Below, one piece after another: positions 53,132 to 60,280 of a DNA stretch of 64,000 bases. The stretch spans positions 1-64,000 of the forward strand of contig NZ_FOBH01000013.1 of assembly GCF_900109785.1 (NCBI RefSeq). The letters run 5' to 3'. The translations under genes were made by a program, and so were the position numbers. Source of the stretch: Nitrosovibrio tenuis. GTDB taxonomy: Bacteria > Pseudomonadota > Gammaproteobacteria > Burkholderiales > Nitrosomonadaceae. Each line of letters begins with the position of its first letter. Position 1 is the stretch's first letter. The notes under the pieces were generated by a model. That model made no database searches. It saw nothing but the letters and a program-made list of their open reading frames with translations, and was not told the origin of the DNA.

Positions 53132-53626
53132 TCAGTGCTGCGTATGATGGTGATGTCCGCCAGCATCGTCTGCTTGTGGCTTGGCATCTTTATTCTTCAT
53201 GGCAAGCTTGGCTTGGGATTTATGCGGAACGAAGCGGGCAGCAGTCGCTTCCTGCCCCGGCAGTTCCACGAATACGGTCACCACTGTTTCGGGCGTAACC
53301 GTGAAGTCTCCGATTCCCTTAAGCATATTGCTTCCCGCCGGTTCCAGCCTGACCGAAGTTTTGGTCTTGGCCTTGCCGATTTGAACCGTGGCCTTGCCTG
53401 CGCCACCTGCTGTGCTGAGATCCTGGTCGGCGTGATCCATTACGTAGAGCACGATTTCCTTGTCCTTGGCGACAAGCTCCAGATGATAAGGCCCGGCCAT
53501 ACGCGTTTGCCCACCATGAGCGGACTCCTTGGAGTCGAAATATTCTTCGGTATGCGCCGCAGCAAATATGGATACTCCCGCTAATGTGACACCGATGAGA
53601 AGGGTAACAACTCGCAACGTAACCAT
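53132..53626 (-). CDS. Exported His-tailed protein, probably copper-linked
   Basis: 164 residues; GAGGAGA lies nine bases before the ATG. Signal peptide MVTLRVVTLLIGVTLAGVSI, cleaved after AAA. The mature part is a small beta-rich domain (AGPYHLELVAKDKEIVLYVM, DFTVTPETVVTVFVELPGQE) and ends DDAGGHHHHTQH, a metal-binding tail. Residues HLELVAKDKEIVLYVMD resemble soluble domains found beside CusB/HlyD-type metal efflux adaptors. The upstream promoter has the same operator layout as that of the copA operon, so copper control is likely. Exact role unknown. Confidence 0.75.
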   Translation of the reverse strand: MVTLRVVTLLIGVTLAGVSIFAAAHTEEYFDSKESAHGGQTRMAGPYHLELVAKDKEIVLYVMDHADQDLSTAGGAGKATVQIGKAKTKTSVRLEPAGSNMLKGIGDFTVTPETVVTVFVELPGQEATAARFVPHKSQAKLAMKNKDAKPQADDAGGHHHHTQH

Positions 53627-53717
53627 TCTAAGTTTCTCCTCGAAATATCTAAAATCTTGAATTCGGTCAAGGGTCCGTAAAACAATTTCTATTTTAATCC
53701 TGATCCTTTACGTTTAT

Positions 53718-53763
53718 ATACTATACCCCAGTTAGGTATATGTCAATACCCATTAGGGGTATA
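53718..53763 (-). promoter_or_regulatory. CsoR-type operator and sigma-70 promoter of the His-tailed gene
   Basis: Minus-strand -35 TTGACA (53741-53746), 17-base spacer, -10 TAGTAT (53718-53723). The spacer carries TATACC-N7-GGTATA (53722-53740), and the -35 is flanked upstream by ATACCC-N5-GGGTAT (53746-53762). The same arrangement occurs at 60234-60280. A repressor on either dyad would block RNA polymerase. Confidence 0.7.
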
Positions 53764-53924
53764 AATCAGTGCTCTCCAACGAATTCAAGAAACGGCCGGG
53801 CGGCCAGCAGCGATAGCATATCCAACGCCTCAGCGTGAATTTGCGATGTGACTCGGAGGGTACGTGTTATCTCTGCAGGGGGCCGGGACGGGCAACCACC
53901 ACGGGTAAACTTGAGCCAACTACT

Positions 53925-55202
53925 TCATTGCGCACCCTTCCGGCTCCGGTCAACCTGAACCGCACTAACCAGAGTGCCGCGGTTACCCCATGCGTTACGG
54001 ATATACGACAAAACCAATGCGATTTCTTCATCATGCAGAACTTGTGCAAACGGCGGCATACCGTAAGGACGAGGATTGCCTATAGTGACCGGCGCATAAC
54101 CCCCGTTGAGAATGCTGCGAATTGCATTAATCGGGGACGCCAGCATAATGCCACGGTTGCCTGTCAGCGCTGGATAGGCGCCCGGTGCACCTTGTCCCAG
54201 ATTTCCATGGCAATCCTGACAATGTGTCTCGTAGAGCTCGCCGCCTCGTTGGAGCAGCTTGTCGACTTCCTCCGTAAGTGGAGGCGCTACTCCCCTGGAA
54301 TGCGGATCGGTCTCGGGCAAGGATTTCAGATACACAGCCATTGCACGGGCATCATCACTCGTTAGATGCTGAAGGCTTTGGCTGACGACGTCTGCCATGG
54401 GTCCTGTTGCGACTGCGCGGTATGACAAGCCCGTGGTGAGTAATTCAATGATGTCCTCGATCGGCCAGTCGGCCGTGCTGGCCTCCTGGAGGGAGGTCAG
54501 TGAAGGTGCATACCAGTTGGAGCCCATGAGTTGCCCGCCTCCCAGTATATTGCCCTGGCTTGCACCGAATGGATTCCGAGCTGTGTGGCAAGCGTTGCAA
54601 TGTCCCAAGCCTTGCACCAGATAGGCACCGCGATTCCATTCATCACTCTTTGCAGCTTGAGGCTGATAAATGCCTTGCTCGAAGTAAAAGGCGCGCCAGA
54701 CATAAATAAGTGGGCGGAGGTTGAATGGAAAATTGATCCGGTTCGGTGGATTGCGCTGCTGAATGGGAGGAAGCGACTGAAGATAGGCGAAGATAGCGTT
54801 GGAATCTTCACGCGTGATTTTAGTATATTCGGTATACGGAAACGCGGGATATAAAGGGCTGCCATTGCGTCCTTTGCCGTCGTGCAGAGCCCGCCAGAAG
54901 TCGTCTTCACTCCATCGTCCGATGCCGGTTTCCTGATCGGGTGTGATATTAGGCGTGACGAATGTACCGATGGAGGTCGCAAGGCTGTGCCCTCCTGCGT
55001 AAGGTTGTCCACCCTGCATCGTGTGGCATCCCATGCAATTGCCAACTTGTGCGAGATAGGCGCCCCGAGCTTGCCGTTGCACAATGTTATCTGTCTTTGT
55101 CATTGACTGTTCCTTGGCCTCGGGGGGCGGATCGACAGGTATCAGGAACATCGCAAGACCTATGAGCCCGGCGATCACAGTAACGATGATGGCGCGTTTC
55201 AT
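53925..55202 (-). CDS. Triheme c-type cytochrome (alcohol-dehydrogenase-subunit-like)
   Basis: The start at 55202 overlaps the preceding stop by one base (TAATG). About 425 residues: N-terminal signal/anchor (MKRAIIVTVIAGLIGLAMFL), then three heme sites CMGCH (about 57), CNACH (about 205) and CQDCH (about 330) at near-equal spacing. This is the architecture of the cytochrome subunits of membrane alcohol, aldehyde or gluconate dehydrogenases (SLATSIGTFVTPNITPDQET, GSPLYPAFPYTEYTKITRED). No dehydrogenase subunit adjoins, so it is an orphan electron carrier in the periplasm, co-transcribed with the copper genes. Confidence 0.88.
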   Translation of the reverse strand: MKRAIIVTVIAGLIGLAMFLIPVDPPPEAKEQSMTKTDNIVQRQARGAYLAQVGNCMGCHTMQGGQPYAGGHSLATSIGTFVTPNITPDQETGIGRWSEDDFWRALHDGKGRNGSPLYPAFPYTEYTKITREDSNAIFAYLQSLPPIQQRNPPNRINFPFNLRPLIYVWRAFYFEQGIYQPQAAKSDEWNRGAYLVQGLGHCNACHTARNPFGASQGNILGGGQLMGSNWYAPSLTSLQEASTADWPIEDIIELLTTGLSYRAVATGPMADVVSQSLQHLTSDDARAMAVYLKSLPETDPHSRGVAPPLTEEVDKLLQRGGELYETHCQDCHGNLGQGAPGAYPALTGNRGIMLASPINAIRSILNGGYAPVTIGNPRPYGMPPFAQVLHDEEIALVLSYIRNAWGNRGTLVSAVQVDRSRKGAQ

Positions 55203-55936
55203 TACAGCCCTGGGGATTGAAGAACGCTGCTGCAACGTCTGGCCAATTTATCAGGGAGGGCTGATGGTGGACCCTCGTGCTTTAAAAGCGCCTCCGAAAC
55301 CGGCTGTGCCGCCAACCATTTTGCAACGGCCGTTGCCTCGTCGGCAGTGAGCTGTTTTGCAATTTCCGACATGCAGTCGGGGGTCTGTCCGCGCATCAAA
55401 CCGCCATTTCGCCAGTTGCCGAATTGAGCAAGGATGTAGATACGTGGCAGACCGAGCAAACCCGGAATGAAAGGCGCTGTCCCCATTAAATCCCGGCCAT
55501 GACATTCGACACACGCGGGAATTTTCCTGACAGGATCGCCCCGCATGATAAGCCTGCGGGCCAGCTCGATTTCGGCAGGTGAGGAGCCTATCGGTTCGGG
55601 CGGGGGGAAAGCCTGCCTCAGTGAAGCGAAATACGCGGCCATATCCCGCAGATATTGATCGGGCAAACCTTCCAGGAGTAAGGCCATGGGCCGATAGTGA
55701 CGCCGGCCGTCCCGGAAATTGCGCAGCTGATTGAAAAGGTAGCCTTCTGGCTTGCCAGCGATGCGCGGATAGTATGCATCTCTTCCTTCCTTGTCCTCCG
55801 GACCGTGGCAGATGACACATGCTTTGACCCGCTCCGCCATCGTATTGGGAACCTCAACCGGAGGAATGCCGGCGGCAATGGCGGAGCAGGTAAAAAACAA
55901 GCTAGCGATCAGCAAAATCAGTGCAAGCGGTCTCAT
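55202..55936 (-). CDS. Diheme c-type cytochrome (c4/c553-like)
   Basis: 244 residues with a signal peptide (MRPLALILLIASLFFTCSAI, cleaved after IAA). Two heme motifs, CVICH (about 40-44) and CVECH (about 142-146), each followed by the usual distal Met region (PMALLLEGL; GGLMRG). The YPRIAGKPEGYLFNQLRNF segment is typical of cytochrome c4-type proteins. Coupled to the triheme cytochrome downstream, so the two probably pass electrons to each other. Third-from-last gene in the apparent copA operon. Confidence 0.88.
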   Translation of the reverse strand: MRPLALILLIASLFFTCSAIAAGIPPVEVPNTMAERVKACVICHGPEDKEGRDAYYPRIAGKPEGYLFNQLRNFRDGRRHYRPMALLLEGLPDQYLRDMAAYFASLRQAFPPPEPIGSSPAEIELARRLIMRGDPVRKIPACVECHGRDLMGTAPFIPGLLGLPRIYILAQFGNWRNGGLMRGQTPDCMSEIAKQLTADEATAVAKWLAAQPVSEALLKHEGPPSALPDKLARRCSSVLQSPGL

Positions 55937-55990
55937 TTTATCTCCGTGAAGCTGCCTCCGTGAAGCGCCCAGGAGCCTATTGACTGTTGG

Positions 55991-56257
55991 CTACCGTGCA
56001 AATTTCCTCACCACAGCCATCAGCTCATCAATTGCCTCATCTCCGTTACCGGACTTGATCGCACCCTGCATGCAGCCGTGGGTATGGCTCTCCAATAACA
56101 GCATGGCCACCGCATCCAACGCGGACTGCAGCGCAGCGACCTGGTTCAGGATATCAACACAATATCGGTCTTCCGATACCATCTTGTTGACGCCGCGCAC
56201 CTGGCCTTCGATACGGTTGAGGCGCCGTATCAGCGCCCCCTTGTCTGGTTGCACCAC
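55991..56257 (-). CDS. csoR: CsoR/FrmR-family copper-type repressor
   Basis: A GTG at 56257 gives an 88-residue protein starting [20 protein letters not shown]. An ATG at 56323 is possible but would overlap copZ. The all-helical CsoR pattern is complete, with the Cu(I) triad Cys ([11 protein letters not shown]), His and Cys ([12 protein letters not shown]) and the conserved [11 protein letters not shown] helix. Copper binding should release it from DNA. It is immediately downstream of copZ and presumably binds the twin ATACCC/GGGTAT operators at 53.7 and 60.25 kb, giving negative autoregulation. Confidence 0.85.
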
Positions 56258-56285
56258 CGTCCGGGGGTCGTGACACGATTCCTTC

Positions 56286-56495
56286 CTAACTGGCGACTTC
56301 AAAACCGGCCCCCTTGATCGCATCCTTGAACTGGTCGGTATTGGCTGCGGCGGCGTCATACCGGATTGTGACCTGTTTCTGTTCGAGGGAAACATCTGCG
56401 CTGTTCACACCGGGCAGTTTCTCCAGGACGTTCTTCACGCTATTGACGCACCCCGAGCACGTCATTCCCTTGACTTTTATGACTTCTGTTTCCAT
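56286..56495 (-). CDS. copZ: CopZ-type copper chaperone (single HMA domain)
   Basis: 69 residues, one ferredoxin-like heavy-metal-associated domain: MTCSGC (11-16) supplies the two Cys that bind Cu(I), followed by [20 protein letters not shown]. It carries copper to the ATPase encoded 40 bases upstream. Length and charge are normal. The stop is directly followed by AGGAAGGA. Confidence 0.93.
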
Positions 56496-56534
56496 TTTAT
56501 GACTCCTTTCAGTTGGGTTAAATGAAGGGGTTGC

Positions 56535-58937
56535 TCAAGCACCAGCCCGCCATCGTTTCAGCAACAGTGAATTGCTTACCACCGATACCGAACTCATTGC
56601 CATTGCCGCGCCAGCAATGACAGGATTAAGCAATCCTATCGCTGCAAGCGGTATGCCGAATATGTTGTAGATGAAGGCGAAGAAAAGGTTCTGGCGAATT
56701 TTCCTCAGCGTCGCGCGCGAAAGTGAAATGGCGTCAGCCACACTCATCAAGTCGTTACGCATGAGCGTTATGTCAGCAGCTTCAATCGCCACGTCGGAGC
56801 CTGCACCGATGGCAAAACTTACATCAGCCGCAGCCAATGCCGGCGCATCGTTGATGCCATCACCAACCATACCGGTAAACTTACCGTCTGATTTTATTTT
56901 GCCCACTTCGGCAGCCTTTTCTTGCGGCAGCACTTCCGCACGGTAGACGGTGATGCCCGCCTGCCTGGCAATGGCGGCTGCGGTGGCGGCGTTATCGCCA
57001 GTCAACATCATGACCTCGATGCCCATCGCTTGCAGCCGTTCTACCGCTGGCGCGGAGGTACTTCGCAACCGGTCGGCAATGGCGAGATAGCCGAGAACTT
57101 CAAATCCGCTGCCGGATACAGTAGCAGCACTGGCTAAGCCTACGACGGTTTTGCCTTTCGCCTGGAGAACAGCTATTGCGTTATTGTCCGGGGACGCGCC
57201 ATGTTCCTGCAGAAATCCGGGCGACCCGAGAATATACTCCACGCCATCAATACGGGCGGTAATTCCGCCGCCGGTAACCGCGCTAAAATCGCTCATCGTT
57301 CGAGGCCGGATATCCATGCTTGCGGCATAATCCATTACCGCTTTTGCGAGGGGATGCTCGGACCCCTGCTCAAGGGTGACGGCAAGTTGCAGTAAATCGC
57401 GCTCGGTAACTGATCCTGTTGAAACAATATCCGTAACTGTGGGCCTGCCTTCCGTCAGGGTGCCGGTTTTGTCCACGATCAGAACCTGAATTTTTTCTGC
57501 TTGTTCCAGCGCGGCAGCATTTTTCACCAACACGCCGACTTGCGCACCGCGTCCTGTCCCGACCATTATTGCGGTTGGCGTAGCGAGTCCCAATGCACAG
57601 GGGCAGGCAATAACCAGTACCGCTACCCCATTGATCAGGGCTGGAACGAAATCGCCTGCCAGCCACCATGTAAAGATCAACGTCACTGCACTGAGCGTCA
57701 CCACCACCGGCACAAATATCCCCGAAATGGTGTCGGCCAATCGCTGGATCGGGGCCTTGGAGCCCTGTGCTTCTTCGACCAGGCGGATAATGGCTGCAAG
57801 CTGGGTATGTGCGCCGACGCTGGTCGCGCGGCATTTGAGCAAACCTTGCTGGTTCAGGGTAGCAGCATAGACCTTTACGCCGGCCCGTTTTGCGACAGGC
57901 AGACTCTCGCCAGTCAGCATTGCCTCGTTCACGCTGGATGTTCCTTCGATGACCACGCCGTCCACCGGCAGGTACTCACCCGGGCGCACGATAAAAATAT
58001 CACCCGTCTTGAGGGTGCTTGCGTCCACTTCGACGATTTCACCATCGCGTTCAACCCGGGCGATCTTGGGCTGCAACCTGATGAGTTCCTCGATGGCTGC
58101 CGAAGTCTTGCTTTTGGCGCGGGCTTCCATCAATTTGCCCAACAGTACCAGCGTAATGATGGCCGCGCTTGCCTCAAAATACACATGCTGATCCAGTGCC
58201 AACAAGGTCACGATCGCACTGAAAAAGTACGCCATGCTGGTGCCAAGCGCAATCAGCACATCCATGTTGGCGCCGCCGCCTCGCAGCGCGTTCCATGCAG
58301 CGATATAGAAGCGTTTGCCGACCCAGAATTGCACCGGCGTGGCCAGCAGCAGTTGCAGCCAACGCGGCAGAATTTCTTCGTGCCCGCCGCTAAACATTGC
58401 TGCCATTTGCAGTACCAGCGGAAGAGTAAGAATGGCCGAAATCCAGAATATCCGCATTTCAGCATGGTAAGCGGCAAGTCTGCGCGCTTTTTCTTCGGTC
58501 CGGCTGGCTTCGCTGATTTCGCTGGCTTTATAGCCTGACCTGGCAACGGCGGCGAGCAACTCGTCCACTGCCACAGCGCCGGGACTGAAGCTGGCGTGAG
58601 CTGCTTCCGTGGCCAAATTGACGGTAGCAGTAACGCCGGGAAGACTGTTCAACGCCTTTTCGATACGGTTGCTGCAGGTCGCACAGGTCATCCCGCTGAT
58701 CTGAAGCTGTACCGATTGCGGAACCACATGAAATCCCGTTTTTTCGATCGAACGGACCAGGTCTTCAGGTTGAATCATGGCGGCATCGAATTCCACCCGT
58801 GCTTTTTCGCTGGCGAAATTGACTGCCGCACGAACGCCGGGGAGTCTATTTAGCGTTTTCTCGATCCGTGCCGCGCAGGCTGTGCAGGTCATGCCTTCAA
58901 TAGCCAGTTCTATTTGCTTGAGCGTAAGTGAATTCAT
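56535..58937 (-). CDS. copA: P1B-type Cu(I)-exporting ATPase
   Basis: 800 residues. Two N-terminal HMA domains with metal sites MTCTAC (16-21) and MTCATC (about 84-89), eight membrane segments, actuator TGES, membrane copper site [10 protein letters not shown], phosphorylation site DKTGTLTEG, the HPLAKA nucleotide motif, [10 protein letters not shown] hinge, and the last-helix [17 protein letters not shown] that gives Cu(I) selectivity (MxxSS). It pumps Cu(I) out of the cytoplasm. Lies 40 bases after the HMA-SafE gene and before copZ and csoR, all on one strand. Confidence 0.96.
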
Positions 58938-58977
58938 AAATTTGGCGTCTGGAACTATTTACGCGGCAAATGGCTGC

Positions 58978-60066
58978 TTAGCGCTGCCGGACATCATTCC
59001 TCGAATCCAGGTGATTGTCCGCTGGCGTCACCTGCTGCTGCCAACTAGATAACAGCGAGTTAACGTCATACCCGGACCCAGTCAGCTTGAGTCCCCGGTC
59101 CGCCATCATCAGGCCCATGGCGATAACGAGAATGGCGGACGCCATTACCAGTTGACGCATGATGCTTCGGGAGACGCTGCTGGCAATCAGGCCGAAACTC
59201 AGGAGCGGCAGCAATGTACCCAGGCCAAAAAAGAAAAGCATCGTTGCCCCTTCCTGCGGATTGCCGGTTCCCGCAGCCATGATGTACATGGCCTGCAAAG
59301 GGCCACAACCCAGCATGAAGCCGTTCAACAACCCTATCACCAGCGGATTCCGTTGACCCCGCAACTCATTCGCGACGCCTTTCGTCACATAGCGAGGTAA
59401 GCGCAAGGTGAACCCGCGCAGTGCAGGAAAAACGTCCAGCATTTTCAGGCCGTAAATGATTACGAAAATGCTCGCTGCAAGGTTGATTACACCCCGCATA
59501 TAAGGTGTGAAAGTCATGACGGAGCCCAATAAACCCATAGCGCCGCCGATAGCCGTATAAGAAGCAGTTTTGCCGGTGGCGTACATCAGATGGCGTGTCG
59601 TGGTGGTAACAGCGGATTGCGGTCCGCCCGCGGTTGCGTAGCCGACCACAAAGCCGCCGCACATACCGATGCAATGAAAGCCCGTAAAAAATCCGATGGA
59701 AAACAACATGGCGTGGCCGAGGCTGGAATTCATCTCACCTATCAGCCCCGGTACCATACTTTTGCCCCAGAAGGTGACGCCACCCACCACCAGTAGGAAG
59801 AACAAAAAAATCAGCCCATTTTGTATATGTCGATTTGAATTATTGATGGATGCACTTTCAAACTCATAACCTTTTTCTTCAATTGTGTGGCGAATGCCGC
59901 TATCCCCGATGAGTTTGCCGTCGAATTCGACGTCGACAGTCCTTTTCGCATAATCCGCCTTTACTTTCTTCACGCCGGGCAGGCAGCCTACCGCATTCTC
60001 GATGGTTTCCTCGCAACCGGTGCAATGCATGCCTTTGATTTTCAGATGGACTGATTTGATAGCCAT
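58978..60066 (-). CDS. HMA domain fused to a TauE/SafE-family membrane protein
   Basis: The ATG at 60066 is preferred since it starts on the HMA domain (MAIKSVHLKIKGMHCTGCEE); longer frames reach a GTG at 60201 without family support. 362 residues: HMA (about 1-70, GMHCTGC), a membrane segment (LIFLFFLLVVGGVTFW), then six to seven segments of the sulfite-exporter/cytochrome-maturation type (GFFTGFHCIGMCGGFVVGYA, LMYATGKTASYTAIGGAMGL, GLLNGFMLGCGPLQAMYIMA). The paired Cys-rich GMCGG and GCGPLQ motifs resemble proteins that supply copper to cytochrome oxidases (CcoS/CcoH-like loci). It probably moves or senses copper at the membrane. First gene after the operator. Confidence 0.85.
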   Translation of the reverse strand: MAIKSVHLKIKGMHCTGCEETIENAVGCLPGVKKVKADYAKRTVDVEFDGKLIGDSGIRHTIEEKGYEFESASINNSNRHIQNGLIFLFFLLVVGGVTFWGKSMVPGLIGEMNSSLGHAMLFSIGFFTGFHCIGMCGGFVVGYATAGGPQSAVTTTTRHLMYATGKTASYTAIGGAMGLLGSVMTFTPYMRGVINLAASIFVIIYGLKMLDVFPALRGFTLRLPRYVTKGVANELRGQRNPLVIGLLNGFMLGCGPLQAMYIMAAGTGNPQEGATMLFFFGLGTLLPLLSFGLIASSVSRSIMRQLVMASAILVIAMGLMMADRGLKLTGSGYDVNSLLSSWQQQVTPADNHLDSRNDVRQR

Positions 60067-60233
60067 TTTGCGCACCATGATGTTATGTGATAACAGTGCC
60101 ATCCCAAGCCAACCTGCCTGGAGCCATTCACCAGGAATTCTCGTTTCACGGAGCTGTATGTCCGGATGTTGATTACCTGGAATAGTCCCGTTCCGGAGCA
60201 CGGAATCCAGGAAATCCCCAGTTATTGGTGCTT

Positions 60234-60280
60234 ACCATATACCCTAATGGGGTATATGTCAATACTTATGAGGGGTATAT
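60234..60280 (-). promoter_or_regulatory. CsoR-type operator and sigma-70 promoter of the copA operon
   Basis: Minus-strand -35 TTGACA (60257-60262), 17-base spacer, -10 TATGGT (60234-60239). The spacer is filled by a perfect dyad ATATACCC-N5-GGGTATAT (60237-60257), and a weaker ATAC/GGTAT dyad (60262-60278) flanks the -35. The string GGTATATGTCAATAC is shared base for base with the promoter at 53.7 kb. Confidence 0.75.

What the first reader, a model, noticed from the sequence alone, without database searches (positions are those of the whole stretch)
53132..60280. Twin CsoR-type promoters define a copper regulon that includes orphan cytochromes c
Two minus-strand promoters share TTGACA-17 bp-TA(T/G)xxT with ATACCC/GGGTAT dyads overlapping the spacer and flanking the -35. 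One precedes HMA-SafE, copA, copZ, csoR and two cytochromes; the other a His-tailed exported protein. Co-transcription of a triheme and a diheme cytochrome c with copper efflux genes, without any dehydrogenase subunit, is not a standard cop operon. It may couple copper stress to periplasmic electron flow.
Basis: partly seen in the sequence, partly recalled or inferred. Interest (0 to 1): 0.72.

Follow-up and report, generated by a model that had tools for sequence, protein, structure and literature searches.

The report
Copper-switch operon carrying two respiratory cytochromes
In soil ammonia-oxidising bacteria of the Nitrosospira group, a copper-sensing repressor appears to control not only the usual copper pump but also two electron-carrying cytochromes and a copper-protein-like exported protein, hinting that these copper-dependent microbes adjust electron flow when copper is in excess.

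Summary
Two minus-strand promoters carry the only two exact ATACCC-N5-GGGTAT dyads of the 3.1 Mb genome, the published core of the CsoR type 2 operator. Exact dyads in 23 genus genomes: 27, against 2 for the reversed control. The composite promoter-operator occurs in 22 of 35 family genomes with a CsoR orthologue and 1 of 90 without.

copA-copZ-csoR-diheme-triheme order is kept in 20 of 23 genus genomes. In one more (G107) the pair has moved away but has its own double CsoR-type promoter. The 21 pairs keep their heme motifs.

The pair itself is a common betaproteobacterial two-gene unit. Three genomes of a sister genus carry a close copy with csoR elsewhere and no operator at the pair; G108 has csoR without the pair.

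The exported protein has a CrdA/FetP-like predicted fold and a paralogue closing the amo-copCD cluster.

Copper control is well supported by comparison but untested at the bench; what the cytochromes do is inference.

The parts
60234..60262 (-). Promoter 1: TTGACA-17-TATGGT
   Evidence: same layout before the copA operon of relatives
60239..60255 (.). CsoR-type operator in the spacer of promoter 1 (exact ATACCCN5GGGTAT)
   Evidence: matches published CsoR type 2 core
60262..60278 (.). Degenerate second dyad flanking the -35 of promoter 1 (2 mismatches)
   Evidence: sequence
58978..60066 (-).
   Evidence: Pfam HMA and DsbD_2
56535..58937 (-). CopA, copper-translocating P-type ATPase with two N-terminal HMA domains
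   Evidence: TIGR01511 585.9 bits, cut-off 397
56286..56495 (-). CopZ-like copper chaperone
   Evidence: HMA in Pfam; best NCBIfam hit CopZ, below its cut-off
55991..56257 (-). CsoR repressor (88 aa from GTG 56257)
   Evidence: PF02583; Cys, His, Cys align with 4m1p CsoR
55202..55936 (-). Diheme cytochrome c, c4-like
   Evidence: two CXXCH; PDB matches to cytochromes c4
53925..55202 (-). Triheme cytochrome c of the membrane-dehydrogenase subunit type; start codon overlaps the diheme stop
   Evidence: three CXXCH; PDB matches 8hdd_B, 8gy2_B
53793..53808 (-). Terminator-like stem between triheme and promoter 2
   Evidence: consensus scan only (14 found, 8.1 expected)
53746..53762 (.). CsoR-type operator just upstream of the -35 of promoter 2 (exact)
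53723..53739 (.). CsoR-type operator in the spacer of promoter 2 (1 mismatch)
53718..53746 (-). Promoter 2: TTGACA-17-TAGTAT
53132..53626 (-). Exported His-tailed protein with a predicted CrdA/FetP-P19-like beta-sandwich; paralogue of the last gene of the amo-copCD cluster

Best explanation
This is a CsoR regulon of two transcription units. With little Cu(I), CsoR sits on the dyads that overlap the -35/-10 region and blocks both promoters; Cu(I) binding to its C-H-C site releases it. Unit 1 then makes the HMA-DsbD_2 membrane protein, CopA, CopZ, CsoR itself, and a c4-like diheme cytochrome whose stop codon overlaps the start of a dehydrogenase-type triheme cytochrome. Unit 2 makes a CrdA/FetP-like periplasmic protein. 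CopA pumps Cu(I) into the periplasm; I infer that the exported protein buffers copper there. I also infer that the cytochrome pair forms an extra electron conduit towards a terminal oxidase, either as a bypass when copper harms cytochrome maturation or other carriers, or as an acceptor for electrons from Cu(I). Shown by sequence comparison: the operators, their match to csoR occurrence, gene linkage, intact heme motifs and purifying selection. Inferred from the CsoR family: repression and copper induction. Inferred from fold only: copper binding by the exported protein. Inference without direct evidence: what the cytochromes do.
Against: No expression or binding data. G108 has operator-copA-copZ-csoR without the pair. 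G010, G011 and G081 have csoR and a pair of the same clade but no site near the pair. 5 of 23 genus genomes have no exact dyad (one-mismatch sites). 13 of 35 CsoR+ genomes lack the strict composite element. No close ba3-type oxidase match in this genome. The triheme alignment ends at residue 427 of 482 of 8hdd_B, so about 55 C-terminal residues are absent and quinone interaction is doubtful. A further minus-strand terminator-like stem lies inside the diheme gene (55650-55634).
Confidence: 0.6

Rival explanations
1. The cytochromes are passengers: a duplicated respiratory gene pair landed behind csoR and is merely co-transcribed, with no role in the copper response.
For: The pair is a self-contained two-gene unit found in many contexts; a paralogous pair exists elsewhere in this genome; G108 lacks the csoR-linked pair; three sister-genus genomes have a close copy without an operator.
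Against: Linkage kept in 20 of 23 genomes; where relocated (G107) the pair has a double CsoR-type promoter; dN/dS as low as that of CopA.
Confidence: 0.25
2. Specific version of the best explanation: the pair oxidises CopA-exported Cu(I) in the periplasm and passes the electrons to a terminal oxidase, doing with cytochromes what CueO does with a multicopper oxidase.
For: Co-regulation with the Cu(I) pump; c4-type cytochromes commonly feed oxidases (recalled); pair adjoins oxidase genes on two plasmids.
Against: The genome also has four matches to the multicopper-oxidase domain PF07732, so the need is unclear; I did not find or test any copper site in either cytochrome.
Confidence: 0.15
3. CsoR here senses something other than copper (as CsoR-family FrmR, CstR or InrS do), so the regulon is not a copper regulon.
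For: The CsoR family includes formaldehyde, sulfur-species and nickel sensors (recalled); FrmR and InrS are among the PDB matches.
Against: C-H-C residues kept and best match is a copper CsoR; operon holds copA and copZ; operator is the copper-CsoR type 2 core.
Confidence: 0.06
4. The cytochromes are transcribed from a separate, copper-independent promoter in the csoR-diheme gap.
For: A weak TTCACG-18-TAAAAT match precedes the diheme start; the gap is 220 bp in L046.
Against: That match overlaps the start codon and such matches are near the chance rate (8 found, 6.2 expected); gaps are 41-75 bp in the other 19 operons.
Confidence: 0.1

Closest known systems
CsoR-controlled copZA operons (studied in Streptomyces lividans)
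   Same: CsoR family protein with C-H-C residues; ATACCC-N5-GGGTAT operator core; copA and copZ targets
   Different: Two c-type cytochromes follow csoR in the same unit; a CrdA-like exported protein forms a second unit
Triheme cytochrome c subunits of quinone-linked dehydrogenases (glucose, alcohol, fructose dehydrogenases)
   Same: Three heme domains aligned over nearly the whole chain, E 1.1e-74 to 8hdd_B
   Different: No dehydrogenase subunit in the operon; about 55 C-terminal residues absent; neighbour is a c4-like diheme
Cytochrome c4
   Same: Diheme; profile E 2e-32 to 6q2u
   Different: Longer C-terminal region with conserved C188-M189; triheme neighbour
Diheme-triheme pair next to ba3-type oxidase genes on Burkholderia contaminans and Janthinobacterium plasmids
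   Same: Same two proteins in the same order
   Different: Oxidase subunits II and I follow; no copper genes annotated there
Helicobacter pylori CrdA and the FetP/P19/FtrA family
   Different: About 12-13% identity; His-rich tail; no iron permease or Crd/Czc pump gene in the window stretch read

Membership tests
Copper-sensing CsoR | DUF156 / Trns_repr_metal fold family | tested here: met
   PF02583 103.5 bits, cut-off 22.8
Copper-sensing CsoR | C-H-C Cu(I) ligand triad | tested here: met
   alignments to 4m1p and 4adz keep Cys, His and Cys; that these are the ligands is recalled
Copper-sensing CsoR | Genetic linkage to copA/copZ | tested here: met
Copper-sensing CsoR | Binds its operator; released by Cu(I) | not testable with these tools
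   needs gel shift with and without Cu(I)
CsoR type 2 operator | ATACCC-N5-GGGTAT core over the promoter | tested here: met
CsoR regulon: cytochrome pair as member | Downstream of a CsoR-type operator in one gene string, or with its own operator | tested here: met
   20 of 23 genus genomes in the string, 1 with its own operator; not so in G010, G011, G081
CsoR regulon: cytochrome pair as member | Copper-dependent transcription | not testable with these tools
   no expression data
Quinone-linked dehydrogenase cytochrome subunit | Triheme sequence similarity | tested here: met
Quinone-linked dehydrogenase cytochrome subunit | Dehydrogenase catalytic subunit encoded beside it | tested here: not met
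   none in the operon
Cytochrome c4 | Two-domain diheme c4-like sequence | tested here: met
CrdA / FetP-P19 copper proteins | Shared fold | tested here: met
CrdA / FetP-P19 copper proteins | Sequence relationship and copper ligands | tested here: inconclusive
   no Pfam or NCBIfam match at E 0.001; H25, H48, H65 invariant in 24 homologues; ligand equivalence not tested

The most novel reading that the evidence does not exclude
In Nitrosospira the copper sensor controls a dedicated periplasmic electron conduit: a c4-like diheme plus triheme cytochrome pair, duplicated from a respiratory unit, is switched on with the Cu(I) pump to take electrons from exported Cu(I) or to bypass copper-damaged carriers. 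Together with a CsoR-controlled twin of the amo-cluster copper-type protein, this would be a copper response built to protect ammonia oxidation and its electron supply.
Probability: 0.3. Interest if true: 0.75.

Novelty: new variant of a known kind. Interest (0 to 1): 0.52.

Why it matters
Ammonia oxidisers depend on copper for ammonia monooxygenase and carry their electrons through c-type cytochromes (recalled). A copper repressor that controls cytochromes would tie metal stress directly to respiratory wiring, which standard cop operons do not do. The comparison gives named genes, operators and natural controls (G107, where the pair has moved; G108, where it is missing beside csoR) for testing how soil nitrifiers cope with copper.

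Tried and rejected
TauE/SafE identity of the first gene: not supported; Pfam reports HMA + DsbD_2. A ba3-type oxidase partner in this genome: the only two hits are 25% identical. Chance origin of the dyads: rejected for near-perfect sites; with two mismatches allowed the count equals control (106 against 107). Other one-mismatch sites in this genome: of seven outside the window, five lie inside ORFs of 216 aa or more, one in a doubtful 154-aa ORF just before another gene, one at the start of a possible efflux operon; none is counted as a regulon member. A conserved third gene around the pair: the largest protein cluster beyond the two cytochromes covered 19 of 87 loci. Copper-regulated diheme/triheme cytochromes in print: none seen in the listings (titles, starts of abstracts); one search returned 0 papers. 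Passages only were read of PMC5960693, PMC6769254, PMC6189053, PMC13374858 and PMC3902906. The library is open-licence PubMed Central only. Matches of the exported-protein profile to designed 'Pizza' proteins cover about 28 residues and are not taken as relatives. Gene trees place the csoR-linked copies in one clade with L043 and L057-L059, but support is 0.149 (diheme) and 0.807 (triheme).
Full report
What is there. On the minus strand from 60262 down to 53132 lie an HMA-DsbD_2 membrane protein, copA, copZ, csoR, a diheme and a triheme cytochrome c, then a separate gene for a His-tailed exported protein. The triheme start codon overlaps the diheme stop codon. A terminator-like stem lies at 53808-53793, between the triheme gene and promoter 2. 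None lies in the csoR-diheme gap, though one lies inside the diheme gene at 55650-55634. Such stems are not far above chance (14 found, 8.1 expected, sd 3.2). Two transcripts are the simplest reading.

The genome. The window lies in a 3.1 Mb genome. The genus called g3 here is unnamed; I take it for Nitrosomonas. Another copy of the exported-protein family in this genome follows AmoA, AmoB, two further amo-cluster proteins, CopC and CopD (AmoA, AmoB and CopC named by recall, CopD by Pfam), so this is an ammonia oxidiser.

The operator. ATACCC-N1-12-GGGTAT is found twice in the window and in 0 of 100 shuffles. The exact N5 form is found twice in the whole genome, both here; with two mismatches allowed, matches equal control (106 against 107). 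Passages of PMC3902906 give the CsoR type 2 consensus as ATATACCCCTNAGGGGTATAT, positions 3-8 and 14-19 most conserved around N5, i.e. the same core. In 23 genus genomes there are 27 exact sites, in 18 of the 23, against 2 for the reversed control. By position, 16 lie before copA operons, 7 before the exported-protein gene (one of these, G112:C40, placed by coordinates only), 1 before the relocated cytochrome pair, 1 before a gene that looks like an efflux membrane-fusion protein (G108, by eye), 1 about 320 bp before a cupredoxin gene (G114), and 1 (G112:C18) was not examined. The composite TTGACANATACCCN5-6GGTAT occurs 25 times in 23 of 125 family genomes with no control match. CsoR matches occur in 36 of 125; I set aside G015 (24% identical), leaving 35. 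The element is in 22 of these 35 and in 1 of the other 90, Fisher P 1.8e-14. The exception, G109, is 80% complete, and its element precedes copA. The genomes are related, so P overstates independence.

Linkage of the cytochromes. Of 22 other genus genomes, 19 have copA-copZ-csoR-diheme-triheme in this order; with the window, 20 of 23. G107 has copA-copZ-csoR on one contig and the pair on another. That pair is preceded by GTACCCATATGGGGTAT, TTGACA and ATACCCTATAAGGGTAT (16-bp spacer), a layout like promoter 2. G108 has the operator and copA-copZ-csoR but no pair beside them. G109 is undecided: its pair found has no copper genes beside it and groups with the paralogous type, and no CsoR was found. 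Of 23 loci scanned for sites, 22 had one within 400 bp, 18 of them inside the spacer of a TTGAC promoter. The miss, L207 (the G107 copper operon), has a first gene that matches only in part; sites lie just upstream of that match.

Selection. All 21 csoR-linked or operator-linked pairs (20 plus G107) keep two and three CXXCH motifs with no stop in the aligned stretch. dN/dS is 0.04-0.13 for the diheme and 0.06-0.15 for the triheme in eight genome pairs (14 genomes), against 0.09-0.13 for CopA.

What the pair is. The diheme profile matches cytochromes c4 (6q2u, E 2e-32; also 1h1o, named c-552 there) and 5lo9. The triheme matches cytochrome subunits of glucose, alcohol and fructose dehydrogenases (8hdd_B, E 1.1e-74), ending at residue 427 of 482. 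78 of 80 have the triheme next to the diheme, and in the other two the DNA held ends soon after. Only 4 of 80, all Nitrosospira or Nitrosovibrio, have csoR and a close copA beside them; two more have a distant P-type ATPase (27-35% identity) in the stretch. On plasmids, of four contexts read out of 245 records, two (Burkholderia contaminans, Janthinobacterium) have ba3-type oxidase genes just downstream, one (Variovorax) has none annotated, and one (Methylobacterium) has an incomplete gene table. In seven loci of 124 searched, all Nitrosomonas where named, an Alginate_exp-type porin gene lies just upstream of the diheme. In G096 and G100 a porin of the same kind has its own CsoR-type promoter upstream of the copper operon; the ten other-genome porin loci checked have no site. 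In three genomes the paralogous pair is one five-heme ORF. These contexts say that the two cytochromes work together; they do not say on what.

Results against. G010, G011 and G081 (g3) have csoR and a pair placed in the csoR-linked clade, 76-80% identical, yet no site with two or fewer mismatches lies upstream of the pair. The paralogous pair of this genome has no site either. Five of 23 genus genomes have no exact dyad, though all five have a one-mismatch site before the copper operon. So operator control is a feature of Nitrosospira, not of the pair.

How it most likely works. See Best explanation. Shown: anatomy, operator distribution, linkage, selection. From family knowledge: CsoR represses and is released by Cu(I); CopA exports Cu(I); CopZ carries it. 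Inference: copper buffering by the exported protein and electron transfer by the pair. I put 0.9 on the CsoR-type operators being real, 0.75-0.8 on the cytochromes being part of the regulon, and about 0.4 on a functional electron-transfer role in copper stress.

Verdict. A real, genus-wide extension of a known regulon, with an untested and interesting functional implication. Not a new kind of system.

Noticed in passing
L199:1893-1909 (G000:C31:42892-42908): A one-mismatch CsoR-type dyad (ATCCCCCATAGGGGTAT) with TTGGCA and TATACA-like hexamers lies just before a small His-containing protein gene and a gene that looks TolC-like by eye (not scanned); a possible further CsoR target in this genome.
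   Followed up: partly
L036:1758-3752 and L037:1839-3923: In G100 and G096 an Alginate_exp porin gene with its own CsoR-type promoter lies just upstream of the copper operon; its first residues resemble the CopZ N-terminus.
   Followed up: partly
L126:7340-11015; also L124, L129, L130, L068, L069, L120: A porin gene of the same kind lies directly upstream of the diheme-triheme pair; in the five loci listed a divergent gene of about 610-630 aa (function not tested) lies further upstream.
   Followed up: partly
L064:5989-7911, L065:6050-7951, L066:7861-9804: The paralogous diheme and triheme form one five-heme ORF.
   Followed up: no
L226:1501 (G108:C24:332272): An exact CsoR-type promoter-operator faces a gene that looks like an efflux membrane-fusion protein by eye.
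   Followed up: no
L230:1501 (G114:C34:449118): An exact dyad lies about 320 bp before a cupredoxin gene (Pfam) and a second small exported-looking protein gene.
   Followed up: partly
L200:8325-15388 (G000:C21): The amo cluster of this genome ends, after CopC and a CopD with cytochrome c and AhpC-TSA domains, in a paralogue of the window's His-tailed exported protein.
   Followed up: partly
L207:10755-11233: In G107 the HMA-DsbD_2 gene matches only in its C-terminal half, in two pieces, so it looks broken or truncated.
   Followed up: no
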